Positions 13,896 through 31,472 of a DNA stretch of 64,000 nucleotides are shown here, piece by piece. The translations under genes were made by a program, and so were the position numbers. Positions within the stretch are counted from its first letter, which is position 1; each line of letters opens with the position of its first letter. Origin of the DNA: Isoptericola jiangsuensis (GTDB lineage Bacteria; Actinomycetota; Actinomycetes; Actinomycetales; Cellulomonadaceae); contig NZ_PDJJ01000001.1 in NCBI RefSeq assembly GCF_002563715.1, forward strand, positions 1,798,001-1,862,000. The letters are read 5' to 3'. The notes under the pieces were generated by a model. That model was not told the origin of the DNA. It was given only the letters and a program-made list of their open reading frames with translations, and did not search any database.

Positions 13896-13915
13896 CAAAC
13901 CGACCAGACGGTACG
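13896..13915. promoter_or_regulatory. Operator copy 1 of the catabolic regulon
   Basis: The site reads CAAACCG-ACCAGA-CGGTACG. It fits the layout CATACCG-n6-CGGTATG of the two perfect copies at 24286 and 31453, with one change in each arm. It lies 47 bp before the SDR gene that heads the SDR-TetR-MDR-SDR operon, where the encoded TetR could regulate itself. Confidence 0.6.
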
Positions 13916-13962
13916 TCACGTGGCCGTGGCGACCGGGACGACGACGTTCGACGGGGTGACGG

Positions 13963-14703
13963 GTGCGCAGGTTCGAGGACAGGGTCACGATCATCACCGG
14001 TGCCAGCCGCGGCATCGGCCTCGCGGTGGCGCGACGCCTCGTCGCCGAGGGCGGCCGGGTGGTGCTGACGGGCCGCCACGCCGACTCCCTCGCGGAGGCC
14101 GTCGCGACGCTCGGCGAGGACCGCGCGTCGGCCGTCGCCGGGCGGGCGGACGACCCGGCGCACCGGGCGGAGGTGCTCGCGCACACCCTCGACCGCCACG
14201 GGCGGCTCGACCACCTCGTCAACAACGCCGGCATCAACCCGGCCTGGGGGCCCGCGCTCGAGGTCGAGCCGTCGGTGATCCGCAAGATCATCGACGTCAA
14301 CGTCGTGGCCGCCCTCGAGTGGACCCGCGACGCGGTCGCCGCGGGCCTGTCCGGGGCGATCGTCTCCACCGCGTCCGTCGCCGGCACGACGGCGAGCCCG
14401 CACATCGCCTTCTACGGCGTGTCCAAGGCCGCCCTGATCAACCTCACCGCGCAGCTCGCCCACGAGCTCGCCCCGCGACTGCGGGTCAACGCCGTCGCCC
14501 CTGCCGTCGTGCGGACGCGCCTCGCCGAGGCCCTGTACGTCGACCGCGAGGAGGAGGTCGCCGCGGCCTACCCCCTGCGCCGCCTCGGCGAGCCGGACGA
14601 CGTCGCCGGGCCCGTCGCGTTCCTGCTCAGCGACGACGCCGCCTGGATCACCGGGCAGACGCTCCGGATCGACGGTGGCGCGTCGATCGTGCCGGTCGGG
14701 TGA
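13963..14703 (+). CDS. SDR-family oxidoreductase
   Basis: A 246-residue classical short-chain dehydrogenase: TGASRGIG cofactor loop (about 11-18), NNAGIN motif, catalytic Ser in the VSTASVAG strand, YGVSK with the Tyr-Lys pair, and a C-terminal ITGQTLRIDGGAS segment. It should oxidise or reduce a hydroxyl/keto group with NAD(P)H. It is first in a coupled operon with the TetR gene; the downstream MDR and SDR follow with start-stop overlaps. The start is a GTG; the regulon operator lies just upstream. Confidence 0.88.
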   Translation: MRRFEDRVTIITGASRGIGLAVARRLVAEGGRVVLTGRHADSLAEAVATLGEDRASAVAGRADDPAHRAEVLAHTLDRHGRLDHLVNNAGINPAWGPALEVEPSVIRKIIDVNVVAALEWTRDAVAAGLSGAIVSTASVAGTTASPHIAFYGVSKAALINLTAQLAHELAPRLRVNAVAPAVVRTRLAEALYVDREEEVAAAYPLRRLGEPDDVAGPVAFLLSDDAAWITGQTLRIDGGASIVPVG

Positions 14704-14714
14704 AGGATGTCCTC

Positions 14715-15299
14715 ATGAAGACCACCCACGTCGCGGACGCCGTGCTCCAGGCCGCCCTGGACCTGTTCTCCACCCAGGGGTACGCCACCACCAGCGTCCA
14801 GCAGATCGTCGAGGCCGCGGGCGTCACCAAGGGCGCCATGTACCACTACTTCCAGTCCAAGGACGACCTGCTGTTCGCGATCTACGACCGGATCCTCACG
14901 CTGCAGAAGCAGCACCTGGACGAGATCGTCGCCGCGGGCGGCGAGACCGTGGCCGTGATCCGCGCCGTGTGCGTCGACGTCGTCGAGACCTCGATCGACC
15001 TCATGCCCGAGGGCACCGTGTTCTTCCGGAGCATGCACATGCTCTCCCCGGCGCGGAACCTGGAGGTCACCCGCCGGCGGCGCGAGTACCACGACGAGTT
15101 CGCGGCGCTGATCGCCCGGGCGCAGGCGGAGGGGACCGTGCGCACCGACGTGCCGCGCCCGGTGCTCATCGCCCACTTCTACTCCGACGTGCACTACCTG
15201 TCGTACTGGTACTCGCCGTCGGGCCCCGAGTCCAAGTCCGAGGTGGCGCACCAGCTCGCCGACCTCTTCCTGCGAAGCATCACCGTGGAGGACGGATGA
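14715..15299 (+). CDS. TetR/AcrR regulator, probable master of the catabolic regulon
   Basis: A 194-residue TetR protein. The helix-turn-helix covers about residues 22-52, with QQIVEAAGVTKGAMYHYF as recognition region and the YHYFQSKDDLL segment common to FadR/KstR/PaaR-like lipid and acyl-CoA sensors. It is the only regulator encoded inside an operon that carries the palindrome seen four times in this cluster, so it is the best candidate for binding all four. An acyl-CoA ligand is likely by family and context. The ATG at 14715 has AAGGA at good spacing; an earlier in-frame GTG (14700) overlaps the SDR stop. Confidence 0.85.
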   Translation: MKTTHVADAVLQAALDLFSTQGYATTSVQQIVEAAGVTKGAMYHYFQSKDDLLFAIYDRILTLQKQHLDEIVAAGGETVAVIRAVCVDVVETSIDLMPEGTVFFRSMHMLSPARNLEVTRRRREYHDEFAALIARAQAEGTVRTDVPRPVLIAHFYSDVHYLSYWYSPSGPESKSEVAHQLADLFLRSITVEDG

Positions 15300-16288
15300 C
15301 CACCCGCACCACCCAGGCCTGGCGCGTGCACCGCACCGGCGAGCCCACCGAGGTCATGCGCCTCGACGACGTGGAGGTCCCCGCCCCGGGACGGGGGGAG
15401 GCCGTCGTGCGGGTGCTCGCCGTCGCCGTCAACTTCCCCGACGTGCTGCTGGCGCGCGGGCAGTACCAGGTGCGCCCGGAGCCGCCGTTCGTGCCCGGCA
15501 TCGAGCTGTGCGGCGAGGTGGTCGAGGTCGGCGAGGGCGTGGACCGCGTGCAGGTCGGCGACCGGGTCGTGGGGTCGCACATCGGGGTGCTCGCCGGACG
15601 GGTGGTCCTGCCCGCGGCCCTGCTGCACCCGGCTCCCGCGGAGCTCGACGACGCGCAGGCCGCGGCCCTCACGGTCGCCTACCAGACCGCCTGGTTCGCC
15701 CTGCACCGGCGGGCCCGGGTCGCCGCCGGGGAGACCGTGCTCGTGCACGCGGCCGCCGGCGGGGTGGGCACGGCCGCCTGCCAGCTCGCCGCCGCGGCCG
15801 GCGCCCGGGTGATCGGCGTCGTCGGCAGCGAGGCCAAGGCGCCCGTCGCCCGGGCCGCGGGTGCCGGGACGGTGCTCCTGCGGTCCGACGACGTGGCCGC
15901 CCGCGTCAAGGAGCTCACCGCCGGCGCCGGCGCCGACGTCGTCCTGGACCCCGTGGGCGGGTCGTCGTTCGAGGCGTCCACGAAGTGCGTCGCGTTCGAG
16001 GGGCGCATCGTGGTGATCGGCTTCGCGAGCGGTGAGATCCCGCCGGTGCGCGCCAACCACGCGCTGGTGAAGAACTACGGGGTGCTCGGCCTGCACTGGG
16101 GCCTGTACGCGCAGCGCGACCCCGCCCTGGTGGACGCCGCCCACGCCGAGCTGGTCGCGCTCGCCGCCGCCGGCGTCCTGCGGCCGGTCGTGGAGGACGT
16201 CGTGGCGTTCGAGAAGGCGCCGGAGGCGATCGAGCTGCTGGCGTCCGGCGCGACGACGGGCCGGCTGGTCGTGCAGGTCGCCTCGTGA
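15296..16288 (+). CDS. NADPH:quinone oxidoreductase-family MDR protein
   Basis: A 330-residue medium-chain dehydrogenase/reductase of the zinc-free quinone oxidoreductase/enoyl reductase group. It shows VNFPDVLLARGQYQ at the substrate site, the VHAAAGGVGTAACQLA nucleotide-binding motif (about 148-163) and no structural-zinc Cys cluster. Such enzymes reduce alpha,beta-unsaturated carbonyls or acyl-CoAs. The ATG overlaps the TetR stop (ATGA) and its stop overlaps the next SDR start (GTGA), so it belongs to the regulated operon. Confidence 0.88.
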   Translation: MTTRTTQAWRVHRTGEPTEVMRLDDVEVPAPGRGEAVVRVLAVAVNFPDVLLARGQYQVRPEPPFVPGIELCGEVVEVGEGVDRVQVGDRVVGSHIGVLAGRVVLPAALLHPAPAELDDAQAAALTVAYQTAWFALHRRARVAAGETVLVHAAAGGVGTAACQLAAAAGARVIGVVGSEAKAPVARAAGAGTVLLRSDDVAARVKELTAGAGADVVLDPVGGSSFEASTKCVAFEGRIVVIGFASGEIPPVRANHALVKNYGVLGLHWGLYAQRDPALVDAAHAELVALAAAGVLRPVVEDVVAFEKAPEAIELLASGATTGRLVVQVAS

Positions 16289-17040
16289 CGGGCGCCGCGC
16301 GGCGGCTCTTCGACCTGGACGGCCGGGTCGCCCTCGTGACCGGCGGTGCGCGCGGCATCGGTGCCGCGTACGTGCGTGCGCTGCACGACGCCGGGGCGCG
16401 CGTCGTCGTCGCCGACGTGCTGGAGGACCCGGGCGCGGCGCTCGCCGCCGAGCTGGGGGAGCGCGCCGTGTTCGCGCGGCTGGACGTCACCGACGAGGAC
16501 GGCTGGGCCGCGGTGGTGCGGGACGTCGCGGCGACCTGGGGCGGCCCGGACGTGCTGGTCAACAACGCGGGCGTCGCCAACGCGGGCCCGATCGAGCACT
16601 ACCCGCGGGCCAAGTGGGACGCGGTGATCGCGGTGAACCTCACCGGGGTGTACCTCGGCTGCCGCGCCGTGGTCGGTGCCATGCGGGAGCGGGGCGGCGG
16701 CTCGATCGTCAACGTGTCCTCGGTCGAGGGGATGCGGGGGAGCACGCACCTGCACGGGTACGTCGCCTCCAAGTTCGGGGTGCGTGGCCTGACGAAGTCG
16801 CTGGCCGTCGAGCTGGGCGCCGACGGCATCCGGGTCAACTCGATCCACCCGGGCTTCGTCGAGACCGAGATGACCGCGCGGATCGACCCGAGCGGACTGC
16901 CGATCCCCCTGCGTCGGGCCGGCCGTCCCGAGGACCTCACGGGCACAGTGCTGTACCTGGCGAGCGACGCCTCGGCCTACGTCACGGGCGCCGAGTTCGT
17001 CGTGGACGGCGGCATGATCAACGGCGTCGGCCACCTCTGA
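16285..17040 (+). CDS. SDR-family oxidoreductase (hydroxysteroid-dehydrogenase-like)
   Basis: A 251-residue classical SDR: TGGARGIGAAY cofactor loop, VNNAGVAN, Ser in VNVSSVEG, Tyr-Lys in YVASK, and a C-terminal YVTGAEFVVDGGM segment. Its overall look (GGARGIG, SSVEGMRG) resembles 3-alpha/20-beta-hydroxysteroid dehydrogenases, though that does not fix the substrate. The GTG start overlaps the MDR stop. It ends the operon; the Liv transporter promoter follows. Confidence 0.87.
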   Translation: MTGAARRLFDLDGRVALVTGGARGIGAAYVRALHDAGARVVVADVLEDPGAALAAELGERAVFARLDVTDEDGWAAVVRDVAATWGGPDVLVNNAGVANAGPIEHYPRAKWDAVIAVNLTGVYLGCRAVVGAMRERGGGSIVNVSSVEGMRGSTHLHGYVASKFGVRGLTKSLAVELGADGIRVNSIHPGFVETEMTARIDPSGLPIPLRRAGRPEDLTGTVLYLASDASAYVTGAEFVVDGGMINGVGHL

Positions 17041-17104
17041 GCCGTTGCCCGGGCGGGGCGCCCGGACCCGGCACGTCACGACGGTGCAACATTCTTGAGA
17101 ATGA

Positions 17105-17124
17105 CATACCGGCCAGTCGGTTTT
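17105..17124. promoter_or_regulatory. Operator copy 2 and promoter of the Liv-type operon
   Basis: The site CATACCG-GCCAGT-CGGTTTT has a perfect left arm and a partly conserved right arm. It ends 5 bp before a TAGGGT -10 box (17130-17135), where a repressor would block transcription. Just upstream (17083-17104) lies GGTGCAACATT...GAATGA, which contains the palindrome CATTCT-TG-AGAATG. The same block recurs in front of the acyl-CoA dehydrogenase at 26531. Confidence 0.6.
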
Positions 17125-17162
17125 TGGGCTAGGGTGTGAGCACCCGACACGAAGAGGTGCCG

Positions 17163-17890
17163 ATGTCCAGCCAGGTCCCACGTCTCGAGGTCGACGGGCT
17201 CACCGTCACCTTCGGAGGGCTCACCGCCCTCGACGACGTCAGCTTCTCCGTCGGCGACGGCCGGACCGTCGCCCTCATCGGCCCCAACGGGGCCGGCAAG
17301 ACCACCGCGTTCAACGCCGTCTGCTCCCTTGTCCGGCCCACCGCCGGGACCGTGCGGATCGCCGGCCGGGCCGCGCCCGCCTCGCCCACCCGGCTCCTCG
17401 AGCGCGGCGTCGCGCGCACCCTCCAGGGGCTCGGCCTCTTCGAGGCCATGACCGTCCTCGAGAACGTCGTCGTCCCCCTCACCGGCCGCCCCGGACGCAC
17501 CGACGCCCACCGCGCGACCGCCCTGGCGACGCTCGACCGGCTCGGCCTCGCGCAGCACGCGCACGCCCCCGTCGGGGCGCTGCCGTACCCCGAGCGCAAA
17601 CGCGTCGCGCTCGCCCGGGCGCTCGTGACCGGACCCCGTCTGCTCCTGCTCGACGAGCCCGCCGGGGGCCTCGGCGCCGAGGACATCGACGAGCTCGCCG
17701 ACGTCGTGCGCCGGCTCGCCGCCGACGGGTGCGCCGTCCTGCTCGTCGAGCACCACATGGACTTCGTCATGGGCCTCGCCGACGAGATCGTCGTCCTCGA
17801 CTTCGGTAGGGTCGTCGCCAGCGGCACCCCCGACGCCGTGCGCGCCGACCCCGCCGTCGAGGCCGCCTACCTCGGGCTCGAGGCGGCCGC

Positions 17891-17894
<4 letters not shown>
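17163..17894 (+). CDS. Branched-chain-type ABC transporter ATPase (LivG-like)
   Basis: A 243-residue ATPase: Walker A GPNGAGKTTAFN (about 41-52), Q-loop region TLQGLGLF, a degenerate signature (LPYPERKRVALARAL in place of LSGGQ), Walker B LLLLDEPAGGL, and the switch region VEHHMDFVM. The altered signature PYPERK is unusual but occurs among LivG-like proteins. The ATG at 17163 is preferred over a GTG at 17136 because GAAGAGG precedes it at the right spacing and the GTG abuts the -10 box. It is first of five coupled transporter genes. Confidence 0.88.
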
Positions 17895-18648
<754 letters not shown>

Positions 18649-18649
<1 letters not shown>

Positions 18650-19527
18650 TGGACCGACTCGCCTTCCTCCTCGCCACCGGCCTCGCCCGAGGCCTCGTCG
18701 TCGCGCTGTTCGCGCTCTCCCTCGTCATCATCTGGCGCGCCGCGCGCCTCGTGAACTTCGCCCAGGCCGCCATGGCCGTCGTCGCCGTCTACGTCGCCCA
18801 CGCGATCACCGGCCTCACCGGGTCGTTCTGGCTCGGCCTCGTCGCGGCCGTCGTCGCCGGGGCCGTCGTCGGGCTGGTCGTCGAGCGCGGGCTCGTCCGC
18901 CTCGTCCCCGGCGGCACGCCCCTGCCCGGCATGATCGTCGCGATCGGCCTGGTCATGGTGCTCCAGTCGGCCCTCGGCATCGCGTTCGGCCCCCAGCACC
19001 GACCCCTGCGGGCACCGCTGTCCCAGCAGCCGTTCGTCGTCGGCGGCGTCCCCGTGCTGTCGCCCTACGACCTGTTCGTCCTCCTCGTCGCCCTCGCCGT
19101 CGTCGGCGGCCTCGCGCTGCTGTTCAACGCCACCACCCTCGGGCTGCAGATGCGGGCCTCCGCCACCGCGCCCGAGGTGTCCCGGCTCCTCGGCGTGCGG
19201 GTGCCCCGCATGGTCACGCTCGGCTGGGCGCTGTCGGGCGGGGTGGCGGCGCTCGCCGTCATGCTGCTCGTCCCCACCGAGCTCGGGCTCAACGCGCACA
19301 GCGGCGACATGCTCTTCGTCCACGCGTTCACCGTCGCCGTCCTGGGCGGGCTCGACTCGCCGGTCGGAGCCCTCGTCGGCGGCGTCGTCGTGGGCGTCCT
19401 CGTCAGCCTCGTCACCGGGTACCTCGGCGCCGGGCTCGCCCCGCTGGCGGTGCTCGCCCTGCTCACCCTCGTCCTGCTCGTGCGACCCGGCGGGATCTTC
19501 GCCGTCAAGGAGGCCCGGACCGCATGA
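18649..19527 (+). CDS. Branched-chain-type ABC permease (LivH-like)
   Basis: A 292-residue inner-membrane permease with about eight hydrophobic helices and the motifs VNFAQAAMAV near the N-terminus and GGLDSPVGALVGGVVVG near the C-terminus that mark LivH proteins. It forms the membrane channel with the LivM-like protein. The stop overlaps the LivM start (ATGA). Confidence 0.9.
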
Positions 19528-20591
19528 CCACCGACCGCCGACGGGTGCGCCGGACCCTGCTGCGCGCCGCCCTGCTCACCCTCCTCGCCGTGGGGGCCAC
19601 GTTCCTGCTCGACGACTACCGCAACTACCAGCTCGCGGTCGTCGCCGCCGTCTTCTGCGCCACCGCCGGCCTCACCCTGCTCGTCGGGCTCACCGGACAG
19701 CTCTCCCTCGGCCACGCCGTCCTCATGGCCGCCGGCGGGTACGGCTACGCCCTCGCCGCGGCACCGGCCGCCGCCGCCGGCCTCGGCGGACCGGCACGGT
19801 TCGCCGTCGGCGTCGCCGGGGCGCTCGCGCTCGCCGGGGCCGTCGGGATGCTGCTCGGCCTCGCCGGTGCCCGCCTCAAGGGCCCCTACCTCGCCGGACT
19901 CACGCTCGCCCTCGTCATCGCGCTGCCGGCGATCACCACGGAGGTGCCCGGCCTCGGCGGCGGCCAGGGCCTCGGCGTCCCCTTCGAGGGGGTGCCCGAC
20001 GCCCTGCGCGGCGTCGTCGGCGTCGAGCAGTGGCACGCCTGGATCGCCGTCGCCGTCGCAGCCGCCGCCGTCACGCCGCTCGCCCTGCTGCGCAGCGGCC
20101 GCGCCGGCACCCGGATGCGCGCCGTGCACGGCGACGAGACCGCCGCCCGGCTCGCCGGGATCTCCCCGGCCCGGGTCAAGACCGGCGCCTTCGCGGCCGG
20201 GGCGCTCGCGGCCGGCCTCGGCGGTGCCGTCCTGGCCGTCGTCACGCAGAACGTCAGCCACGGCGCGTACGACCTCGCGTTCTCCCTCCTGCTGCTCGTC
20301 GCCGTCGTCGTCGGCGGGCTCGGCAGCATCGGCGGTGCCGCCGTCGGCGCGGTGCTCGTCGTCCTGCTGCCCTGGTGGATCGACCTGGTCGTGGCGGGGG
20401 TCGGGCTGCCCGCGGACGTCGAGCAGCGGCTGGCCGGCAACGCCGCCGTCCTCGTCTTCGGTGTGCTGCTCGTCGCGGTCACCGTCGTGTGGCCGGGAGG
20501 GCTCTCGCACGCCCTCGGCGGCCGCGTCAGCTCCCTCGCCCGCCGGTTCCGACCGGCCCCGCACGTCCCGCCAACGCTCACAGAGAGGTGA
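19524..20591 (+). CDS. Branched-chain-type ABC permease (LivM-like)
   Basis: A 355-residue permease with about ten hydrophobic segments. The LivM hallmarks are GLTGQLSLGHAVLMAAGGYGYA (about residues 55-76), RLKGPYLAGLTLAL, and the loop RSGRAGTRMRAVHGDETAARLAGISPARVK, followed by GGLGSIGGAAVGAVLVV. It is the second half of the translocation channel. Six bases separate it from the binding-protein gene. Confidence 0.9.
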   Translation: MTTDRRRVRRTLLRAALLTLLAVGATFLLDDYRNYQLAVVAAVFCATAGLTLLVGLTGQLSLGHAVLMAAGGYGYALAAAPAAAAGLGGPARFAVGVAGALALAGAVGMLLGLAGARLKGPYLAGLTLALVIALPAITTEVPGLGGGQGLGVPFEGVPDALRGVVGVEQWHAWIAVAVAAAAVTPLALLRSGRAGTRMRAVHGDETAARLAGISPARVKTGAFAAGALAAGLGGAVLAVVTQNVSHGAYDLAFSLLLLVAVVVGGLGSIGGAAVGAVLVVLLPWWIDLVVAGVGLPADVEQRLAGNAAVLVFGVLLVAVTVVWPGGLSHALGGRVSSLARRFRPAPHVPPTLTER

Positions 20592-20596
20592 ACCCC

Positions 20597-21874
20597 ATGC
20601 GGACCACCACCACCCCCCGCCCCCGGGCGCGCGCCACCGTCGCGACGCTCGGCGCCGCGGCCCTCGCCCTGACGCTCGCCGCCTGCGGCGGGGCCGACGA
20701 GGCGACCCCCGGCGTCACCGCCGAGACCGTCACCATCGGCACCCACCAGCCCCTGACCGGACCGGCCGCCGCCGGGTACTCGTCGATCTCGGCGGCGACG
20801 CAGGCGTACTTCGACCACGTCAACGCCCAGGGCGGCGTCCACGGGCGGCAGATCGAGTACGTCGTGAAGGACGACGGCTACAACCCGGCGAACACGCAGA
20901 CCGTCGTGCGCGAGCTCGTCCAGCAGGACGACGTCTTCGCGGTCGTCAACGGGCTGGGGACGCCGACGCACTCCGCTGTGCTCGACTTCCTCAACCAGAA
21001 CGAGGTGCCGGACCTGTTCGTGTCGTCCGGGTCGACCGCCTGGGACGACCCCGAGGCGTACCCGTACACGTTCGGCTACAACGCGGACTACCACGTCGAG
21101 GGGGCGGCCCTCGGCCGGTACGCGGCCGACGAGCACCCCGGCGAGACCGTGTGCCTGCTCGGGCAGAACGACGACTACGGCGAGACCCTCCTCGAGGGCG
21201 TGCAGATCGCGCTCGGCGAGGACGGCGTCGCGGCCCACGAGACCTACGAGACCGCCAACCAGGACGTCACGGCGCAGATCGGCGCGCTCCAGGGCGCCGG
21301 GTGCGAGGTCGTGGTGCTGGGCACCGTCAACGGCTTCACCGCGCTCGCCGTGGGCACCGCCGCCCAGATGGGCTTCACCCCCACCTGGATGGCGGCCTCC
21401 GCCGGCGGCGACTACCCCACCCTCGTGGGATTCCTCGGCGAGGACCTCGCCCCGGTCCTGCTCCAGGGGTTCGTGTCCGTCAACTACCTGCCCTTCGGTC
21501 CCGGCGGCGACTGGGTCGAGCTGTTCTCGGCCGTCAACGACGAGTACAACGCCGGCGCGCCGTTCGACGGCAACACCGTGTTCGGCATGAGCGTCGGCTA
21601 CACGTTCGTCGAGGCCCTGGCCCGGGCGGGGGAGGACCCGACCCGCGAGTCCCTCGTGGCGGCGCTGGAGTCCGGCGACGTGGTCGGCAACGGCCTCGCG
21701 CCCCTCGCCTACTCGGCCGACGACCACGCCGGGTTCACGACCGCGGGGATCACCGTGGTCGACGACGGCGTCCAGGACTTCGTCGGCACCACCTACCGGC
21801 TCGACGGCGAGACCGTCACGACGACCGAGCCGCAGGTGCCCGCCGTCGAGGGCGAGGGCGTCCCCACCGAGTGA
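20597..21874 (+). CDS. Lipoprotein substrate-binding protein of the Liv-type importer
   Basis: A 425-residue periplasmic-binding-protein fold (LivK/AmiC type). The N-terminal signal peptide ends in a lipobox (LTLAAC, Cys near residue 31), so it is anchored to the outer face of the membrane. The mature part carries VTIGTHQPLTGPAAAGYSS and the conserved NDDYGETLLEGV hinge region. The start follows AGAGAGG. In this family substrates include amino acids, amides, short fatty acids and aromatic acids; the neighbouring acyl-CoA genes suggest a carboxylic acid rather than leucine. Confidence 0.9.
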   Translation: MRTTTTPRPRARATVATLGAAALALTLAACGGADEATPGVTAETVTIGTHQPLTGPAAAGYSSISAATQAYFDHVNAQGGVHGRQIEYVVKDDGYNPANTQTVVRELVQQDDVFAVVNGLGTPTHSAVLDFLNQNEVPDLFVSSGSTAWDDPEAYPYTFGYNADYHVEGAALGRYAADEHPGETVCLLGQNDDYGETLLEGVQIALGEDGVAAHETYETANQDVTAQIGALQGAGCEVVVLGTVNGFTALAVGTAAQMGFTPTWMAASAGGDYPTLVGFLGEDLAPVLLQGFVSVNYLPFGPGGDWVELFSAVNDEYNAGAPFDGNTVFGMSVGYTFVEALARAGEDPTRESLVAALESGDVVGNGLAPLAYSADDHAGFTTAGITVVDDGVQDFVGTTYRLDGETVTTTEPQVPAVEGEGVPTE

Positions 21875-21968: not shown

Positions 21969-23171
21969 TCAGCGCCCCAGCTGCGCCCGTCCCAGGGAGG
22001 CGAGGTGGACCTCGTCGGGGCCGTCGGCGATGCGCAGCGACCGGATGCCGGCGAACATCTCGGCCAGCGGCTGGTCGCCCGAGACGCCCGCGGCGCCGAA
22101 GAGCTGCACCACGCGGTCCAGGATGCGCTGCACGGCGCGCGGCACGGCGATCTTGATCGCCTGGATCTCCGTCATCGCCCGCCGGTTGCCGACGGTGTCC
22201 ATCAACCAGGCGGCCTTGAGCACCAGCAGGCGCAGCGCCTCGATCTCGACGCGCGCCTCGGCGACCCACTCGCGGACCACGCCCTGGTGGGCCAGGGGCA
22301 CGCCGAACGTCGACCGTTCCTGCGCCCGTCCGACGGCCAGGGCGAGCGCCCGCTCCGCGGTGCCGAGGGCGCGCATGCAGTGGTGGATGCGGCCCGGCCC
22401 GAGCCGGGCCTGGGCGATCGCGAACCCGCCGCCCTCGACGCCGAGCAGGTTCGCGGCCGGCACGCGGACGTCGTCGAACACGATCTCGGCGTGCCCGCCG
22501 TGGTCGCGGTCGTCGTAGCCGAACACCGTCAGGGGCCGCACGACCCGCACGCCGGGGGTGTCGCGCGGGACGAGGATCATCGACTGCCGGCGGTGCCGCT
22601 CGGCGTCGGGGTCGGTCTTGCCCATGACGACCAGGAGCGTGCAGTCGGGGCTCATCGCGCCCGTCGACCACCACTTGCGCCCGGTGACGACGTACTCGTC
22701 ACCGTCGCGGCGGATGCGGGTGCCGATCTGGGAGGCGTCCGAGGACGCGACGTCCGGCTCGGTCATGCAGAACGCGGAGCGGGCGCGGGCGTCGAGCAGC
22801 GGGTCGAGCCAGCGCTCCTGCTGCTCGGGCGTGCCGAACTCGGCGAGCAGCTCCATGTTGCCGGTGTCCGGGGCCGCGCAGTTCATCGCGACGGGGGCCA
22901 GGCGCGGGCTCCAGCCCGACAGCTCGGCGAGCGGTGCGTACTGGAGGTTGGTCAGGCCGGCGCCGCGCGCGGACGGCAGGAACAGGTTCCACAGCCCGTC
23001 GGCGCGCGCCGTGGCACGCAGGTCGTCGACGACGGGCCGGAACGTCCACACGTCGGGGGTGGCGGCGAGCTGGGCGTCCAGGACGGGCTCGGCCGGCAGG
23101 ACGTGGTCGTGCACGAAGGCGCGCACCCGCTCGGTGAGGTCGGCGGTGCGCGGGTCGGGGGCGAAGTCCAT
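21969..23171 (-). CDS. ACAD10/11-like acyl-CoA dehydrogenase
   Basis: A 400-residue acyl-CoA dehydrogenase. The segment NCAAPDTGNMELL (about 97-109) and the C-terminal DGPDEVHLASLGR are the signatures of the ACAD10/ACAD11 subgroup; EPDVASSDASQIGT is the FAD/acyl-CoA loop. In that subgroup an APH-fold kinase acts with the dehydrogenase on 4-hydroxyacyl-CoA: phosphorylation of the 4-hydroxyl, then elimination to an enoyl-CoA (mammalian ACAD11; LvaA/LvaC in levulinate use). The kinase here is encoded just upstream and ends two bases before this ATG. The substrate assignment is inference. Confidence 0.88.
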   Translation of the reverse strand: MDFAPDPRTADLTERVRAFVHDHVLPAEPVLDAQLAATPDVWTFRPVVDDLRATARADGLWNLFLPSARGAGLTNLQYAPLAELSGWSPRLAPVAMNCAAPDTGNMELLAEFGTPEQQERWLDPLLDARARSAFCMTEPDVASSDASQIGTRIRRDGDEYVVTGRKWWSTGAMSPDCTLLVVMGKTDPDAERHRRQSMILVPRDTPGVRVVRPLTVFGYDDRDHGGHAEIVFDDVRVPAANLLGVEGGGFAIAQARLGPGRIHHCMRALGTAERALALAVGRAQERSTFGVPLAHQGVVREWVAEARVEIEALRLLVLKAAWLMDTVGNRRAMTEIQAIKIAVPRAVQRILDRVVQLFGAAGVSGDQPLAEMFAGIRSLRIADGPDEVHLASLGRAQLGR

Positions 23172-24285: not shown

Positions 24286-24305
24286 CATACCGCGCGGTCG
24301 GTATG
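24286..24305. promoter_or_regulatory. Operator copy 3 (perfect palindrome) between kinase and repeat-protein genes
   Basis: A perfect inverted repeat, CATACCG-CGCGGT-CGGTATG. On the minus strand it contains a TATGCT -10 box for the kinase/dehydrogenase operon, the same arrangement as at 31453. The divergent gene at 24362 has its own -10-like TACGAT (24350-24355). A second perfect palindrome, GGCGTCGG-TG-CCGACGCC, lies alongside at 24263-24280. Confidence 0.75.
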
Positions 24306-25795: not shown

Positions 25796-26434
25796 TCAGA
25801 CGCGCAGCAGGTGCCGGAACGCGGACGCGGCGGTGTCCGGGCTCGGCGGCTCGCCGGCGATGAGGTCGGCGTAGGTGAAGGACTCCGACACGCGCACGAG
25901 GAGGTAGGCCAGGGCGTGCGCGTCGATGGCGCCGCCGAACGGGGCGCGACCGAGATGGGTGCGCACGAGGTGCTCGACCGTGGCGACGTAGCGGTGCTGG
26001 ATGGGGCTGGCCGTCGTGGTGAGCAGGCGCAGGGCGCGCGCCGGTTCGCGGGCGAGGAAGTCGCGGAAGTAGTCGGCCCGGATGAGGTCGGTCGCGAAGT
26101 GCGTCAGCAGCGTGGCGACGTGCTCGGCGCCGTGGTGCCGGGCGTCGTCGGCGGCGCGGGCAGCCTGGACGAGCGTGGGCACGGCCAGCGACCACAGCAC
26201 CTCGGCGAGGAGGGCGTCGCGGTTGCCGACCCAGCGGAAGACGGAGGTCCGGTCGACGCCGAGCTCGACGGCCAGCGCGCCCATGTCGATCCGGCGGCCC
26301 GAGACGAAGGTCGCCCGGGCGGCCTCGAACGCGCCGAGCGCGTCGGGGTGGACCCCGGGCACCAGGCGGGCGGACAGCCGGGTCGGGGCGGCCCGGAGGC
26401 CGACGTCGGCGATCTCGCCGGTCGCGGTGAGCAT
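25796..26434 (-). CDS. TetR-family regulator (QsdR-like)
   Basis: A 212-residue TetR protein with an N-terminal helix-turn-helix (about 47-72, MGALAVELGVDRTSVFRWVG). The C-terminal region with RVSESFTYADLIAGEPP resembles the QsdR group, whose founding member controls a quorum-quenching lactonase gene; that resemblance is from memory. It is divergent from the acyl-CoA dehydrogenase/thiolase operon and may bind the TGCAACA repeats in the shared intergenic region. Confidence 0.8.
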   Translation of the reverse strand: MLTATGEIADVGLRAAPTRLSARLVPGVHPDALGAFEAARATFVSGRRIDMGALAVELGVDRTSVFRWVGNRDALLAEVLWSLAVPTLVQAARAADDARHHGAEHVATLLTHFATDLIRADYFRDFLAREPARALRLLTTTASPIQHRYVATVEHLVRTHLGRAPFGGAIDAHALAYLLVRVSESFTYADLIAGEPPSPDTAASAFRHLLRV

Positions 26435-26466: not shown

Positions 26467-26493
26467 TGCAACATTTCCCAGAATGATGCAACA
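26467..26493. promoter_or_regulatory. TGCAACA direct repeats in the TetR/dehydrogenase intergenic region
   Basis: TGCAACA occurs at 26467-26473 and again exactly 20 bp later at 26487-26493. The wider block GGTGCAACATT...GAATGA is also found at 17083-17104 before the Liv operon. This looks like a regulatory site shared by the two operons; the divergent QsdR-like regulator is the nearest candidate to bind it. Confidence 0.5.
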
Positions 26494-26530
26494 CTGGGTG
26501 CACGAGATCGACGACGATCGGAGACGACAG

Positions 26531-27754
26531 ATGACCATCACCGCACCGGCAGGGTCGGCCGCCGACCCCGGGACGCACCCCCTGGAACGCCTGGAGGCCG
26601 ACTTCTACGGCTTCCAGGACCTCCTCACCCCCGTCGAGCAGGACGCCGTCGCGCGGGTCCGCGACTTCATGGAGCGCGAGGTGCGCCCCGTCGCCGACGA
26701 CTACTGGGAACGCGCCGAGTGCCCGGTTCACCTGTTCAAGCCCTTCGCGGAGCTCGGCTCGGTCGGCGCCGCCTGGCCCGAGACCGCGCAGTTCGAGAGC
26801 TCGGCCGTGTTCCGCGGCTGGGTCGGCATGGAGCTGGCCCGGGTCGACTCGTCGTTCTGCACCTTCATCGGCGTCTCCAGTGGCCTCGCGATGAGCTCCA
26901 TCGGCCTCGGGGGCTCCCCCGAGCAGCGGGACCGCTGGCTGCCGCCGATGGCCCGCGGCGACCTCATCGGCGCGTTCGGGCTCACCGAACCGCTGTCCGG
27001 CTCGGACACGGCTCGCGGCCTGCGCACCACCGCCACCCGTCACGGCGACACCTGGGTGCTCAACGGTGCCAAGCGGTGGATCGGGAACGCGACGTTCGCC
27101 GACGTCGTCGTGGTGTGGGCCAAGGACACCGCCGACGACCAGGTCAAGGGCTTCCTCGTGCGCCGGGGCGCGCCGGGCTTCACCGCCACCAAGATCGAGC
27201 GCAAGCAGTCGCTGCGGATCGTGCAGAACGCCGACATCACGCTGGTCGACGTCGAGGTCGCCGAGGCCGACCGGCTGCAGCGCATCGACAGCTTCCGCGA
27301 CCTGGCGAACGTCCTGCGGGTTACCCGCGACGGCGTCTCCTGGCAGGCGCTGGGCACGATGATCGGCGCCTACGAGGCCGCGGTCCGGTACACCAAGGAG
27401 CGCGAGCAGTTCGGCCACCCGATCGCCTCCTACCAGCTGGTCCAGGACAAGCTCGCCACCGCGCTCGGCAACATCACCGCCAGCCTGGGCATGTGCGTGC
27501 GCGTCGCGCAGATGCAGGACGCCGGCACCCAGCGCGACGAGCACGCCGCGCTCGCCAAGGCCTTCGTCACCACGCGGATGCGCGAGACCGTCGCGCTGGC
27601 CCGCGAGGTCTGCGGGGGCAACGGCATCACGCTGGACACCGGCGTGGCCCGCTACTTCGCCGACGCCGAGGCCGTCTACACCTTCGAGGGCACCCGCGAC
27701 ATGAACCACCTCATCGTCGGCCGTTCCGTCACGGGCCACGCGGCCTTCGTCTGA
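26531..27754 (+). CDS. Acyl-CoA dehydrogenase (glutaryl-CoA-dehydrogenase-like)
   Basis: A 407-residue flavoenzyme with the FGLTEPLSGSD motif (about 157-167), NGAKRWIGNATFAD, EREQFGHPIASYQLVQ, and the catalytic Glu in YTFEGTRDMNHLIVGR near the C-terminus. It resembles the glutaryl-CoA dehydrogenase/plant ACX4 branch, but whether it decarboxylates cannot be said. It makes the 2-enoyl-CoA for the MaoC hydratase and thiolase nearby. The ATG follows CGGAGA. It is cotranscribed with the thiolase 23 bp downstream. Confidence 0.9.
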   Translation: MTITAPAGSAADPGTHPLERLEADFYGFQDLLTPVEQDAVARVRDFMEREVRPVADDYWERAECPVHLFKPFAELGSVGAAWPETAQFESSAVFRGWVGMELARVDSSFCTFIGVSSGLAMSSIGLGGSPEQRDRWLPPMARGDLIGAFGLTEPLSGSDTARGLRTTATRHGDTWVLNGAKRWIGNATFADVVVVWAKDTADDQVKGFLVRRGAPGFTATKIERKQSLRIVQNADITLVDVEVAEADRLQRIDSFRDLANVLRVTRDGVSWQALGTMIGAYEAAVRYTKEREQFGHPIASYQLVQDKLATALGNITASLGMCVRVAQMQDAGTQRDEHAALAKAFVTTRMRETVALAREVCGGNGITLDTGVARYFADAEAVYTFEGTRDMNHLIVGRSVTGHAAFV

Positions 27755-27777
27755 GACCACACCACAGGAGGACTTCC

Positions 27778-29001
27778 ATGACCGAGGCCTACATCGTGGC
27801 CATGGCGCGCTCGCCGATCGGGCGCGCGCACAAGGGGTCGCTGCGCGAGGTGCGCGCCGACGACCTCGCCGCGCGGATGGTCCGCGCGGCGCTGGACCAG
27901 GTGCCCTCCCTCGACCCGTCGCGCGTCGAGGACCTCGTCCTCGGCTGCGGGCTGCCGGGCGGGGAGCAGGGCATGAACATGGGGCGGGTCGTCGCCGTCG
28001 CGCTCGGCCTGGACGGCGTGCCCGGCACCACCGTGACCCGGTACTGCGCGTCCAGCGTGCAGTCGACCCGCATGGCGTTCCACGCGATCAAGGCGGGCGA
28101 GGGGGACGTGTTCGTCTCCGCCGGCGCCGAGTCCGTCAGCGGGATGCGCGCGGGGTCGTCGGACCACATCGTCGGTCAGCAGCTGGAGAACCCCCGGTTC
28201 GCGGAGGCCGTCGAGCGGACCGCGAAGCGGGCGGTCGGCGGCGCCGCGCCGTGGACGGACCCCCGTGCGGACGGGGCCCTGCCGGACCCGTACATCGCCA
28301 TGGGGCAGACCGCGGAGAACCTCGCGTCGCTGTGCGGGATCACGCGGCAGGAGCAGGACGAGTTCGCCGCCCGTTCCCAGCAGCGTGCCGAGAAGGCCCT
28401 CGCGGACGGGTTCTGGGCGCGGGACATCACGCCGGTCACGCTCGACGACGGCACGGTCGTGGCCGCCGACGACGGACCGCGCGCCGGGACCACCGCGGCG
28501 CGGCTCGCGACGCTCGAGCCGGTGTTCCGGCCCGACGGCACCGTGACCGCGGGCAACGCCTGCCCGCTCAACGACGGCGCCGCGGCGCTGGTGATCGTCT
28601 CCGGGCGCGTCGTCGACGAGCTCGGGCTGCAGCCGGTCGCCCGGATCGTGTCGACGGGCGTCACCGGGCTGTCGCCGGAGATCATGGGCCTCGGCCCCGT
28701 CGAGGCGAGCCGGCAGGCGCTGCGGCGGGCGGGGCTGACGATCGAGGATATCGACCTGGTGGAGATCAACGAGGCGTTCGCCGCCCAGGTGATCCCGTCG
28801 GCCCGCGAGCTCGGCGTCGACCCCGACCGGCTCAACGTGCACGGCGGCGCCATCGCCGTCGGGCACCCGTTCGGGATGACCGGGGCGCGCATCACCTCCA
28901 CGCTCGTGCACGGGCTGGAGGCCACCGGCGGCCGGTTCGGCCTGGAGACCATGTGCGTCGGCGGCGGCCAGGGCATGGCGATGGTGCTCGAGCGCGTCTG
29001 A
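27778..29001 (+). CDS. Acetyl-CoA C-acyltransferase (thiolase)
   Basis: A 407-residue thiolase with the acyl-accepting Cys in TRYCASSVQSTR (about 91), the VEINEAFAAQ segment, GGAIAVGHPFGMTGAR with the active-site His, and the C-terminal CVGGGQGMAM with the second Cys. It should cleave 3-ketoacyl-CoA to acetyl-CoA plus a shortened acyl-CoA. It has a strong AGGAGG ribosome-binding site and ends at a long terminator. It is the last step of the pathway encoded here. Confidence 0.92.
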   Translation: MTEAYIVAMARSPIGRAHKGSLREVRADDLAARMVRAALDQVPSLDPSRVEDLVLGCGLPGGEQGMNMGRVVAVALGLDGVPGTTVTRYCASSVQSTRMAFHAIKAGEGDVFVSAGAESVSGMRAGSSDHIVGQQLENPRFAEAVERTAKRAVGGAAPWTDPRADGALPDPYIAMGQTAENLASLCGITRQEQDEFAARSQQRAEKALADGFWARDITPVTLDDGTVVAADDGPRAGTTAARLATLEPVFRPDGTVTAGNACPLNDGAAALVIVSGRVVDELGLQPVARIVSTGVTGLSPEIMGLGPVEASRQALRRAGLTIEDIDLVEINEAFAAQVIPSARELGVDPDRLNVHGGAIAVGHPFGMTGARITSTLVHGLEATGGRFGLETMCVGGGQGMAMVLERV

Positions 29002-29015
29002 CACCGGGCGCGGCA

Positions 29016-29058
29016 GCACGGCGGCGGGCGGCTCCGGGAGAGCCGCCCGCCGCCGTGC
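29016..29058. terminator. Strong hairpin after the thiolase
   Basis: A perfect 19-bp stem with a 5-nt CGGGA loop (arms 29016-29034 and 29040-29058), 14 bp after the thiolase stop. The converging MaoC gene ends 33 bp further on, so it may act in both directions. Confidence 0.8.
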
Positions 29059-29091
29059 GTCCGGGTCCGTCCGGCGTCCCCGGCGCCGGGC

Positions 29092-29547
29092 TCAGCCGCC
29101 GGGGACGTACAGCGCCAGCGTCTGCGCGACGAGCGCCGGGCGCTCGGCGCCCTCCAGCTCGACCGTGACGGTCGAGGAGAGCCGCACGCCGTGGCCCGCC
29201 GGCTCCGCGCCGGTGATCTCGACCGTCGCGCGGACGCGGCCCCCGGCCGGCACCGGGGTGAGGAACCGGACCGTGTCGAGCCCGTAGTTGACGGCCATCG
29301 CGGTGCGCCCGACGTCGAGCAGCTCACCGGTGAGCCGCGGCAGGAGCGCCAGGGTGAGGTACCCGTGCGCGATGGTGCCCCCGAACGGGCCGTCGGCGGC
29401 CCGCTCCACGTCCAGGTGGATCCACTGGTGGTCCTCCGTGGCGTCCGCGAACGCGGTGATGCGCGGCTGGTCGACGGTGAACCAGTCGCCGGTGGCGCGC
29501 TGCCCGACGGCGTCGGCGAGCGCGGCGGGGCTCTCGACGGTGATCAC
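29092..29547 (-). CDS. MaoC-like (R)-enoyl-CoA hydratase
   Basis: A 151-residue hotdog hydratase with the hydratase-2 signature: Asp and His in FADATEDHQWIHLD (about 33-46), then FGGTIAHGYLTLALLP. It should hydrate trans-2-enoyl-CoA to (R)-3-hydroxyacyl-CoA, which the SDR encoded directly upstream could oxidise. The GTG start overlaps the SDR stop (GTGA). It is the last gene of the ADH-SDR-MaoC operon. Confidence 0.9.
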   Translation of the reverse strand: MITVESPAALADAVGQRATGDWFTVDQPRITAFADATEDHQWIHLDVERAADGPFGGTIAHGYLTLALLPRLTGELLDVGRTAMAVNYGLDTVRFLTPVPAGGRVRATVEITGAEPAGHGVRLSSTVTVELEGAERPALVAQTLALYVPGG

Positions 29548-30305
29548 GCCTTCGGCCCACCGGCCACGTAGAGGACCTGGCCGTTGGTGAACCCGGCCTC
29601 CTGCGAGCAGAAGAACGACACGGCCGCGGCGATGTCCTCCGGCTGCCCGACCCGGCCGACGGGCACGTCGGCGGCCATGTGCGCGAGGAAGTCCTCCAGG
29701 GGCACACCGACCCGTCGCGCGGTCTCCGCGATCATCTCGGTGGCGACGACACCCGGCGCGACGGCGTTCGCCGTGACGCCGAACTTGCCGAGCTCGACGG
29801 CGAGCGTCTTGGTGAACCCCTGCATCCCGGCCTTGGCGGCGGCGTAGTTGGCCTGCCCGCGGTTGCCGAGCGCCGAGGTGCTCGACAGGTTGACGACGCG
29901 GCCCCAGCCCGCCTCGACCATGCCGCCCTGCACCGCGCGGGTCATGAGGAACGCGCCGCGCAGGTGCACGGAGAGCACCGCGTCCCAGTCGTCGGTGGAC
30001 ATCTTGAACAGCAGGTTGTCGCGCAGGATGCCGGCGTTGTTGACCAGGATCGTCGCGGCACCGAGCTCGGCGGTGACGCGGGCGACGGCGTCGGCGACGG
30101 ACTGCTCGTCCGCGACGTCCACGCCGACGCCGATCGCCCGGTGGCCGTCGGCGGCGAGCCGGGCCGCCGTCTCGGCCGCGACGTCCTCGAGCAGGTCGAG
30201 CACGGCCACGGCGTGCCCGTCCGCGGCGAGGCGGGCGGCGGTGGCGGCACCGATGCCGCGGGCGCCGCCGGTGACGATCGCGACACGTGCGGGGGAGGCT
30301 GTCAT
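29544..30305 (-). CDS. FabG-like SDR (3-hydroxyacyl-CoA dehydrogenase candidate)
   Basis: A 253-residue classical SDR, close to FabG/PhaB in motifs: TGGARGIGAATA, NNAGILRDNLLFKM, Ser in VNLSSTSALGN, YAAAKAG, and PGVVATEM. NNAGIxRDxxxxKM is shared with acetoacetyl-CoA and 3-oxoacyl-ACP reductases. With the MaoC hydratase it would make a 3-ketoacyl-CoA for the thiolase. Its ATG overlaps the ADH stop (ATGA). Confidence 0.9.
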   Translation of the reverse strand: MTASPARVAIVTGGARGIGAATAARLAADGHAVAVLDLLEDVAAETAARLAADGHRAIGVGVDVADEQSVADAVARVTAELGAATILVNNAGILRDNLLFKMSTDDWDAVLSVHLRGAFLMTRAVQGGMVEAGWGRVVNLSSTSALGNRGQANYAAAKAGMQGFTKTLAVELGKFGVTANAVAPGVVATEMIAETARRVGVPLEDFLAHMAADVPVGRVGQPEDIAAAVSFFCSQEAGFTNGQVLYVAGGPKA

Positions 30306-31423
30306 GCGGGGTTCCTCTCGTCGAAGGTGATGAGCTGGCGCAGCTCCTCGCCGGCGGCGAGGGCGTCCAGCGCTCGGGGGAGCTCGTCGAGCCCGATGCG
30401 GGCCGAGACGAGCCGTTCCAGCGGCAGTCGTCCTGCGCGCCAGAGTTCCACGTATCGGGGGATGTCGCGGCCCGGTACCGCGGAGCCCAGGTAGGAGCCG
30501 ACGACGGTCCGCGCCTCGGCGGTCAGCGTCAACGGGGCCAGCGTGGCCCGGTCGGCGGGACCGGGCAGACCGACCGTCACCGTGGTCCCGCCCGGCGCGG
30601 TGAGGGCGTACGCCGTCTCGAACGCCCGGGCCGAGCCGGCAGCCTCGACGACGACGGGTGCCCGGACGCCGGCCGCGACGGCCTCGTCGGGCGTGAGCGC
30701 CCGGGCGGCACCGAGCTCGCGGGCCAGGGCCAGCTTGCCGGGCACGGTGTCGACCCCGGTCACCTCGTGCCCGAGGGCGCGGGCCACGAGCAGCGCGGCC
30801 ATGCCGACCCCGCCGAGCCCGACGACGGTGACGGGGTCGCCGGGCGCGGGCCGCCCGGCGTTGAGGACGGCGCCGCCGCCAGTGAGGACCGCGCAGCCGA
30901 GCAGGGCGGCGACGTCGGCCGGGACGTCGTCGGGCACCGCCACGACGGACGTGGCGGAGACCACGGCGTGGGTGGCGAACGCGCTCACGCCCAGGTGGTG
31001 GTGGACGTCCTGGCCGGCGCGGTGCAGCCGGCGGACGCCCCCCACGAGCTCCCCGGCCGCGTTCGCGGCGGAGCCGACGCTGCACGGCAGGCGGCCGTCG
31101 GTGGCGCAGGCGGCGCACGCCCCGCAGCGGGGGAGGAAGGTCATGACGACGCGGGCGCCCACCGGGACGGCGGTGCCCGGCCCGACGTCCTCGACGATGC
31201 CGGCGGCCTCGTGCCCGAGGAGCATCGGGGTGGGACGCACCCGGTTGCCGTCGACGACGGAGAGGTCGGAGTGGCACAGCCCGGCGGCCTCGATCCGGAC
31301 GGCGACCTCGCCGGGTCCGGGCGGGTCGAGCTCGAGCGGTCCGACGGTGATCGGGCTCGCCCTGCTCCAGGGCGCGGGCGCTCCGCAGCGTTCCAGCACG
31401 GCACCGGTGATCTGCACGGTCAC
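30302..31423 (-). CDS. Zinc-dependent alcohol dehydrogenase (class III-like MDR)
   Basis: A 373-residue MDR enzyme with catalytic-zinc residues GLCHSD and GHEAAG, a structural-zinc cluster C-x2-C-x2-C-x7-C (CGACAACATDGRLPC), and the VVGLGGVGMAAL NAD loop. It resembles aryl/alkyl alcohol and mycothiol- or S-hydroxymethyl-type dehydrogenases. The GTG start has a very good GAGGAGG ribosome-binding site. It heads the ADH-SDR-MaoC operon and has the regulon palindrome over its promoter. It could oxidise an alcohol substrate before CoA activation. Confidence 0.88.
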   Translation of the reverse strand: MTVQITGAVLERCGAPAPWSRASPITVGPLELDPPGPGEVAVRIEAAGLCHSDLSVVDGNRVRPTPMLLGHEAAGIVEDVGPGTAVPVGARVVMTFLPRCGACAACATDGRLPCSVGSAANAAGELVGGVRRLHRAGQDVHHHLGVSAFATHAVVSATSVVAVPDDVPADVAALLGCAVLTGGGAVLNAGRPAPGDPVTVVGLGGVGMAALLVARALGHEVTGVDTVPGKLALARELGAARALTPDEAVAAGVRAPVVVEAAGSARAFETAYALTAPGGTTVTVGLPGPADRATLAPLTLTAEARTVVGSYLGSAVPGRDIPRYVELWRAGRLPLERLVSARIGLDELPRALDALAAGEELRQLITFDERNPA

Positions 31424-31452
31424 GACCTCCTCGTCGTCGACGGTGCGCCCAG

Positions 31453-31472
31453 CATACCGACCGCGCGGTATG
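31453..31472. promoter_or_regulatory. Operator copy 4 (perfect palindrome) over the ADH promoter
   Basis: CATACCG-ACCGCG-CGGTATG is the exact reverse complement of the site at 24286-24305. Read on the minus strand it contains TATGCT (-10), with TCGACG 17 bp upstream as -35, so a bound repressor would block the ADH-SDR-MaoC operon. Confidence 0.75.

What the first reader, a model, noticed from the sequence alone, without database searches (positions are those of the whole stretch)
13896..31472. One 20-bp palindrome marks a 17-kb catabolic regulon
CATACCG-n6-CGGTATG is perfect at 24286 and 31453 (exact reverse complements of each other) and recognisable at 13896 and 17105. All four lie in front of transcription units of the same acyl-CoA-type gene set: SDR/TetR/MDR/SDR, Liv importer, kinase/ACAD, ADH/SDR/MaoC. 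At the two perfect sites the minus-strand -10 (TATGCT) lies inside the palindrome. The core ACCG-nnCGnn-CGGT resembles, from memory, PaaR-type TetR sites. The set has no obvious known counterpart and no CoA ligase in the window, so the substrate is open.
Basis: partly seen in the sequence, partly recalled or inferred. Interest (0 to 1): 0.72.

Follow-up and report, generated by a model that had tools for sequence, protein, structure and literature searches.

The report
TetR regulon for 4-hydroxy-acid catabolism
Four copies of one DNA switch, probably read by a repressor protein encoded beside them, control a set of bacterial genes that look built to break down 4-hydroxy fatty acids, and a fifth copy sits elsewhere in the genome in front of a substitute for the one enzyme the set lacks.

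Summary
In the 4.04 Mb genome (genus Isoptericola) the 20-mer with at most 2 mismatches occurs at 5 places; 4 are the reported ones. The sites recur before the same transcription units in relatives. In 80 named TetR loci, 155 of 155 strong sites lie at 5' ends of cluster genes. All 16 genomes with the TetR gene have strong sites; 10 of 10 searched without it have no match below E 0.12. The window's TetR (14715-15299) is the likely reader; binding is not shown.

The predicted missing ligase exists. In 10 of 16 TetR genomes an AMP ligase follows the ACAD gene. The other six, one sub-clade with the window, lack it there, but in 6 of 6 a different ligase elsewhere has the operator. That ligase's orthologues have none in 8 of 8 genomes with the operon ligase and 5 of 5 without TetR.

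A second box, TGCAACATT-n6-AATG, occurs exactly twice in the genome: beside the second TetR gene and abutting the Liv operator.

The parts
13896..13915 (+). TetR1-type operator O1 before SDR1-TetR1-MDR1-SDR2 (asymmetric CAAACCG-n6-CGGTACG); -10-like TACAGT at 13882-13887 lies just upstream
13963..14703 (+). SDR1, short-chain dehydrogenase/reductase
14715..15299 (+). TetR1, TetR-family regulator (TetR_N + TetR_C_24), likely reader of the palindrome
   Evidence: AlphaFold mean pLDDT 93.1, all-helical
15296..16288 (+). MDR1, quinone-oxidoreductase-like medium-chain dehydrogenase/reductase (best NCBIfam PIG3 family, below cut-off)
16285..17040 (+). SDR2; best NCBIfam score, below cut-off, to trans-4-hydroxycyclohexanecarboxylate dehydrogenase
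17085..17103 (+). TetR2-type box TGCAACATT-n6-AATG in the Liv promoter, immediately upstream of O2
17105..17124 (+). TetR1-type operator O2 before the Liv operon (CATACCG-n6-CGGTTTT); -10-like TAGGGT at 17130-17135
17163..21874 (+). LivG, LivF, LivH, LivM, LivK: Liv-type ABC importer with substrate-binding protein (LivF named from its place and translation only, not scanned)
21969..23171 (-). ACAD1, ACAD10/11- and LvaC-type acyl-CoA dehydrogenase (phospho-elimination type)
   Evidence: residues in PMC12440821
23173..24234 (-). APH-family kinase, ACAD11 kinase-domain/LvaA type
24286..24305 (-). TetR1-type operator O3 (perfect arms) before kinase-ACAD1; minus-strand -10-like TATGCT at 24284-24289 overlaps it
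25796..26434 (-). TetR2, TetR-type regulator with TetR_C_36 (PF18598) C-terminal domain
26467..26490 (.). TetR2-type box TGCAACATTTCCCAGAATGATGCA between divergent TetR2 and ACAD2
26531..29001 (+). ACAD2 (26531-27754) and thiolase (27778-29001); no TetR1-type site in front
29092..31423 (-). ADH (30302-31423), SDR3 (29544-30305) and MaoC hydratase (29092-29547)
31453..31472 (-). TetR1-type operator O4 (perfect arms) before ADH-SDR3-MaoC; minus-strand -10-like TATGCT at 31451-31456 overlaps it

Best explanation
TetR1 (14715-15299) is a dimeric repressor of one dispersed catabolic regulon. It binds CATACCG-n6-CGGTATG-type operators that overlap the core promoter of its own operon, the Liv importer, the ACAD11-like kinase/ACAD pair and the ADH-SDR3-MaoC unit, plus an acyl-CoA ligase locus elsewhere (C1:2644785-2644804). 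A pathway metabolite, most likely a CoA thioester made by the ligase, releases it. The pathway imports a small carboxylate, activates it with the ligase, brings carbon 4 to the hydroxy state with SDR/MDR/ADH enzymes, phosphorylates the 4-hydroxyacyl-CoA with the kinase and eliminates phosphate with ACAD1 to give a 2-enoyl-CoA. MaoC, SDR3 and thiolase then carry out beta-oxidation. A second regulator, TetR2, controls ACAD2-thiolase through a different box and probably co-controls the importer here. Shown by sequence: sites, their conservation, co-occurrence with TetR1, enzyme families and key residues. Inferred: binding, repression, ligand, substrate, import, and the direction of the SDR/ADH steps.
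For: Genome-wide only 5 places at 2 mismatches or fewer, 4 of them here. In the stretches fetched around TetR1 in 15 further genomes the sites hold orthologous positions, with the exceptions told in the full report. Each has a recurring place relative to a -10-like hexamer: TATGCT in 15 of 15 kinase promoters, TA starting at the 6th base after the site in 16 of 16 Liv promoters, TATGCT in 9 of 12 ADH or SDR3 promoters (read off). 79 of 80 named TetR1 loci have a site scoring 20 or more, 155 in all, and 155 of 155 lie at cluster gene starts; 30 column-shuffled matrices give mean 0.07, maximum 1. A kinase gene read on the opposite strand to the Liv operon has a site in 8 of 9 cases; following LivK in the same direction 0 of 19. 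Model R1: best E 0.0098 or lower in 16 of 16 TetR1 genomes, 0.12 or higher in 10 of 10 without TetR1. G031 has TetR1 and the four sites but no TetR2 at E 1e-25. ACAD1 and kinase match ACAD11 chains (E 1.5e-126 and 1e-42) and share D220, N225, R176, R626, H634, R637, D753 and the HCMR motif. Ligase operator.
Against: No binding or expression data exist. R1 and the matrix were trained on sites from TetR1 genomes, including the window, so the contrast is partly circular; the 69 other named loci are not training contigs. G013 and G020, without TetR1, have weak matches (E 0.12, 0.13) that I did not inspect. The ligase operators score 21.2-25.3 bits, below the lowest training site (25.6). The six genomes with a ligase operator are one group, so this is one event, not six. 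In three Microbacterium genomes that lack the operon ligase no ligase of the two known types lay beside the weaker sites looked at. TetR2 is present in 15 of 16 TetR1 genomes, so co-occurrence alone barely separates the two. ACAD2 and thiolase carry no TetR1 site here. The kinase residue R86 named in PMC12440821 could not be placed. 4-hydroxyacyl-CoA is inferred from relatives and residues only.
Confidence: 0.82

Rival explanations
1. TetR2 (25796-26434), not TetR1, binds the CATACCG palindrome.
For: It is encoded in the same cluster and is present in 15 of 16 TetR1 genomes.
Against: G031 lacks TetR2 at E 1e-25 yet keeps all four palindromes. TetR2 has its own distinct box at its divergent promoter; the two loci checked that have ACAD2 but no TetR2, L064 and L179, have no such box. 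The matrix finds no CATACCG-type site in the window's TetR2-ACAD2 intergenic region.
Confidence: 0.06
2. The palindrome belongs to a global regulator of acyl-CoA metabolism encoded elsewhere, and TetR1 is only a neighbour.
For: An ACCGACCGGTCGGT repeat is also tied to PaaR, so the core is shared. G013 and G020, without TetR1, have weak matches at E 0.12-0.13 that I did not inspect.
Against: The 10 searched relatives without TetR1 have no match below E 0.12. In this genome the rows listed down to about E 0.13 name only five places, all next to acyl-CoA, SDR or Liv genes of the set or the ligase locus. The site before TetR1's own operon is present in 76 of 79 scorable named loci.
Confidence: 0.08
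3. The regulon is right but the substrate is not a 4-hydroxy acid: the kinase/ACAD pair acts on another hydroxylated or cyclic acyl-CoA.
For: SDR2's best family score is a 4-hydroxycyclohexanecarboxylate dehydrogenase, below cut-off. There are several extra dehydrogenases, and the Liv-type importer differs from the ActP-like transporter of the Pseudomonas lva cluster.
Against: The residues that PMC12440821 ties to 4-hydroxy- and 4-phosphoacyl-CoA chemistry and that could be placed are conserved, and the operon in relatives reads kinase-ACAD-ligase.
Confidence: 0.2

Closest known systems
lvaABCDE levulinate operon of Pseudomonas putida (PMC6692424, passages read; the primary paper, Rand et al. 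2017, not read)
   Same: Kinase (LvaA-type), ACAD (LvaC-type), a reductase and, in most TetR1 genomes searched, an acyl-CoA ligase in one regulated set that turns 4-hydroxyacyl-CoA into a beta-oxidation intermediate. A phylogenetically different ligase (LvaE2) is also reported in P. citronellolis.
   Different: Regulator is TetR-type instead of the sigma54-type LvaR; importer is Liv ABC instead of an ActP-like symporter; no gene lies between kinase and ACAD where lvaB could sit (23173/23171); several dispersed units; in this sub-clade the ligase is elsewhere in the genome.
ACAD10/ACAD11 of mammals (PMC12440821 and PMC11342911, passages read)
   Same: Same two domains; catalytic Asp of the kinase, catalytic Asp of the ACAD, the Arg/His/Arg set and the HCMR motif are conserved.
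   Different: Two separate proteins here; no HAD domain as in ACAD10.
PaaR regulon of Burkholderia cenocepacia (PMC2770484, passages read)
   Same: TetR-type negative regulator of dispersed acyl-CoA operons; inverted repeat ACCGACCGGTCGGT between putative -35 and -10.
   Different: Outer arms CAT/ATG and asymmetric variants here; no paa genes among the annotated cluster genes; the two proteins were not compared.
QsdR/qsd operon of Rhodococcus erythropolis (PMC6262395, passages read)
   Same: TetR2 has the TetR_C_36 C-terminal domain; that QsdR has it is recalled. qsd pairs a lactonase with an acyl-CoA ligase, a neighbouring chemistry.
   Different: No lactonase was identified in the cluster; TetR2 and QsdR were not aligned here.

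Membership tests
TetR-family local repressor with its own regulon | N-terminal HTH and TetR C-terminal domain | tested here: met
   PF00440 E 4.1e-19 and PF17932 E 2.9e-21; model pLDDT 93.1, all-helical
TetR-family local repressor with its own regulon | Palindromic operator at its own promoter, overlapping the promoter core | tested here: met
   O1 in the window; site before SDR1 in 76 of 79 scorable named loci; a TANNNT hexamer just upstream in 16 of 16 rows (read off). The consensus promoter scan found none at the operators
TetR-family local repressor with its own regulon | Protein binds the operator and ligand releases it | not testable with these tools
   none
ACAD10/11-LvaA/LvaC enzyme pair | Kinase catalytic Asp (mouse ACAD11 D220) with N225 and CoA-pocket R176 | tested here: met
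   identical in the alignment with the ACAD11 chains; numbering fits with an offset of one; residues named in PMC12440821
ACAD10/11-LvaA/LvaC enzyme pair | Kinase CoA-pocket R86 next to the helix-C Glu | tested here: inconclusive
   with that offset position 86 is not Arg in the chain; an Arg beside the Glu is conserved (RE in both)
ACAD10/11-LvaA/LvaC enzyme pair | ACAD catalytic Asp (D753) with R626, H634, R637 and the HCMR motif | tested here: met
   RLGPGRIHHCMR and ADGPDEVH identical at these residues to 8v3u
ACAD10/11-LvaA/LvaC enzyme pair | Converts 4-hydroxyacyl-CoA to 2-enoyl-CoA | not testable with these tools
   none
lva operon | lvaB-like small gene next to lvaA | tested here: not met
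   kinase and ACAD1 are contiguous (23173/23171), no gene between; no search for lvaB elsewhere was run
lva operon | acyl-CoA ligase in the operon | tested here: not met
   no homologue of the two ligases studied in the window; present after ACAD1 in 10 of 16 TetR1 genomes
PaaR regulon | paa ring-cleavage genes in the regulon | tested here: not met
   no such family among the 18 of 19 cluster genes scanned; LivF not scanned
PaaR regulon | ACCG-n6-CGGT operator core | tested here: met
   a short core, so weak
QsdR (for TetR2) | TetR_C_36 C-terminal domain | tested here: met
   PF18598 E 2.8e-39; that QsdR bears it is recalled
QsdR (for TetR2) | Homoserine-lactone-type ligand | not testable with these tools
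   none

The most novel reading that the evidence does not exclude
An actinobacterial 4-hydroxy-acid regulon in which one Isoptericola lineage replaced its lost operon ligase by putting a different, already present acyl-CoA ligase locus under the same repressor through the gain of a new operator, while a second TetR with its own box is interlocked with the first at the importer promoter. This would be a visible case of operator gain making good a gene loss inside a regulon.
Probability: 0.55. Interest if true: 0.72.

Novelty: new variant of a known kind. Interest (0 to 1): 0.58.

Why it matters
It turns an anonymous motif into a testable regulon found in many actinobacterial genera. It predicts a 4-hydroxy-acid (levulinate or gamma-lactone type) catabolic route with a different regulator and importer from the Pseudomonas lva operon, and shows bacterial relatives of ACAD10/11 in a native regulated gene set. 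It also offers a case of regulatory rewiring: the same ligase gene has an operator only in the sub-clade that lacks the operon ligase.

Tried and rejected
The core ACCGNNCRNNCGGT as a regulon marker: rejected, no excess over chance in the window and dozens of matches genome-wide. TetR2 as reader: judged less likely. Consensus sigma-70 scan of 13700-31700: found nothing at the operators, so promoter statements rest on conserved -10-like hexamers only. Fold comparison of TetR1 with solved structures: did not run, the machine was busy at three tries. PA3973 of Pseudomonas aeruginosa as an analogue: rejected, a different motif (PMC9736018 passages). Search of plasmids for TetR1: one distant match, 42% identity. 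Replication of the ligase swap in Microbacterium: not seen in 3 genomes; a fourth locus asked for, L212, was not held. Kinase residue R86: could not be placed, dropped from the list of met residues on recheck. Extra sites in sister Isoptericola at a carboxylesterase locus and at PucR/LuxR regulators: seen; the model did not list them in the window's genome, so they are left out of the regulon given here. Literature: the listings showed no title describing this regulon; most of these listings were capped, and nothing wider is claimed.
Full report
CHECK. Genome-wide, CATACCG-n6-CGGTATG with at most two mismatches occurs at five places in 4,041,252 bases; four are the reported ones and the fifth has a broken core. 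At the two perfect sites the minus-strand TATGCT shares four of its six bases with the palindrome. No homologue of the two ligases studied here is in the window.

CONSERVATION. TetR1 (14715-15299) has an orthologue in 16 of 58 genomes searched, the own genome included. In stretches fetched around it in the other 15 the sites stand in front of SDR1, LivG, the kinase and ADH (or SDR3) in conserved variants. The 80 named loci (the best 80 of 502 candidates; Isoptericola, Cellulomonas, Microbacterium, Agromyces, Glycomyces, Leifsonia, Promicromonospora and others) hold 155 sites of 20 bits or more in 1,520,974 bases, all 155 at the 5' end of a cluster gene, counted as 420 bp before to 60 bp inside it; 79 of 80 loci have at least one, L214 none. 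Thirty column-shuffled matrices gave a mean of 0.07. Eleven of the 80 loci have the contig lengths of training stretches; the other 69 hold 131 sites in 68 loci. Among genes with enough upstream sequence a site precedes SDR1 in 76 of 79, LivG in 66 of 66, and the kinase in 8 of 9 when it is read on the strand opposite to Liv but 0 of 19 when it follows LivK in the same direction. The sites therefore track transcription units.

PROMOTER GEOMETRY. Three layouts recur. At kinase promoters the right arm runs into TATGCT (15 of 15), at ADH or SDR3 promoters in 9 of 12 (read off). At LivG an invariant TA of a -10-like hexamer begins at the 6th base after the site (16 of 16). At SDR1 a TANNNT hexamer lies just before the site (16 of 16, read off). 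All fit block of RNA polymerase by a bound dimer; that is inference, and a consensus promoter scan found none of them.

WHICH REGULATOR. A sequence-only model of 39 sites gave best E-values of 0.0019-0.0098 in 16 of 16 genomes with TetR1 and 0.12-3.4 in 10 of 10 without it; training came from TetR1 genomes. TetR2 occurs in 15 of those 16 plus one genome without TetR1. G031 keeps the four sites without TetR2. Between TetR2 and ACAD2 lies a different palindrome, TGCAACATTTCCCAGAATGATGCA (26467-26490). The motif TGCAACATT-n6-AATG occurs exactly twice in the whole genome: there and at 17085-17103, directly upstream of the Liv operator. Of 27 stretches scanned with up to 3 mismatches (counted by me), 18 have both TetR2 and ACAD2 and 18 of 18 have a box beside TetR2 or ACAD2; 4 have TetR2 without ACAD2 and 2 of 4 have a box (L224, L232; not L226, L243); 5 have no TetR2 and 0 of 5 have a box, two of these (L064, L179) having ACAD2. 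At Liv promoters the box passes that threshold only in the window, L056, L057 and L059, so the meeting of two regulators at the importer is a local feature rather than a general one.

CHEMISTRY. The kinase and ACAD1 are the two halves of ACAD11. PMC12440821 (passages) names kinase D220, N225, R86 and R176 and ACAD R626, H634, R637, D753 and an HCMR motif. With a numbering offset of one, seven of these eight residues fall on the expected letters of the solved chains (N225 being the first letter of its row) and are identical in the window proteins; R86 could not be placed. In that work and in PMC11342911 (passages) such pairs turn 4-hydroxyacyl-CoA, through a 4-phospho intermediate, into 2-enoyl-CoA. 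With MaoC, SDR3 and thiolase beside them, 4-hydroxy acids or their lactones or 4-keto forms are the likely substrates. The exact substrate, and what the Liv importer carries, stay open.

THE LIGASE. In 10 of 16 TetR1 genomes an AMP ligase of about 530 residues follows ACAD1, and 53 of 80 named loci show it; of the other 27, 17 show no ACAD1 in their stretch and 10 have ACAD1 without it, four of these from the window's sub-clade and one cut off by its contig end. It is therefore probably ancestral. The own genome and five sisters lack it at the locus. At C1:2644785-2644804, between a different AMP ligase and a divergent acyl-CoA dehydrogenase, lies a site of 25.0 bits; in 40 Mb of simulated sequence no site reached 25 and one reached 24. 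The ligase's orthologues (19 genomes) have such a site in 6 of 6 genomes that lack the operon ligase and have TetR1, in 0 of 8 with TetR1 and the operon ligase, and in 0 of 5 without TetR1. Two TetR1 genomes (G031, G033) had no orthologue at that threshold. The six fall in one strongly supported group with G002, which lacks TetR1 and the site (100/100); the six without G002 are weakly supported (50/88), so the order of gain and loss is open and this is one evolutionary event. The divergent pair exists without the site in G002, G020 and G026. The two ligases are 36% identical. The operator could serve the ligase, the divergent dehydrogenase or both. In three Microbacterium genomes without the operon ligase no comparable ligase site was seen, so the swap is not a general rule.

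VERDICT. A real, widely conserved regulon; a new variant of known parts (TetR control, lva/ACAD11-type enzymes). Binding and substrate need the bench.

Noticed in passing
31593-31608: Perfect SOS/LexA-type box TCGAACACGCGTTCGA (the type is recalled) between the ADH operator and the apparent imuA-imuB-dnaE2 genes (names from reading the translations); with one mismatch allowed 12 of 100 shuffles also have a match.
   Followed up: partly
32409-32601: 90-bp tandem repeat, 2.2 copies, 94% matches, near the start of the imuB-like gene.
   Followed up: no
24362-25324: 320-residue open frame next to the kinase operator without any Pfam or NCBIfam match; in the fetched stretches it was seen only in L051, L052, L053 and L054.
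   Followed up: no
L129-L133: Five sister genomes have a strong TetR1-type site; in L131 it stands before a COesterase-family gene (only L131 scanned), with no homologue at E 1e-20 found in the own genome. It could be an ester or lactone entry step.
   Followed up: partly
L068, L134-L138: TetR1-type sites between PucR-type and LuxR-type regulator genes in other Isoptericola genomes, with a second site near a TetR-type gene in L068, L135 and L136 (TetR_C_36 confirmed in L068 only).
   Followed up: partly
L179:17325, L062 near ACAD2: A weaker CATACCG-like site stands before ACAD2 in a stretch that lacks TetR2, and a similar sequence lies beside the TetR2 box in L062: possible exchange of control between the two regulators.
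   Followed up: no
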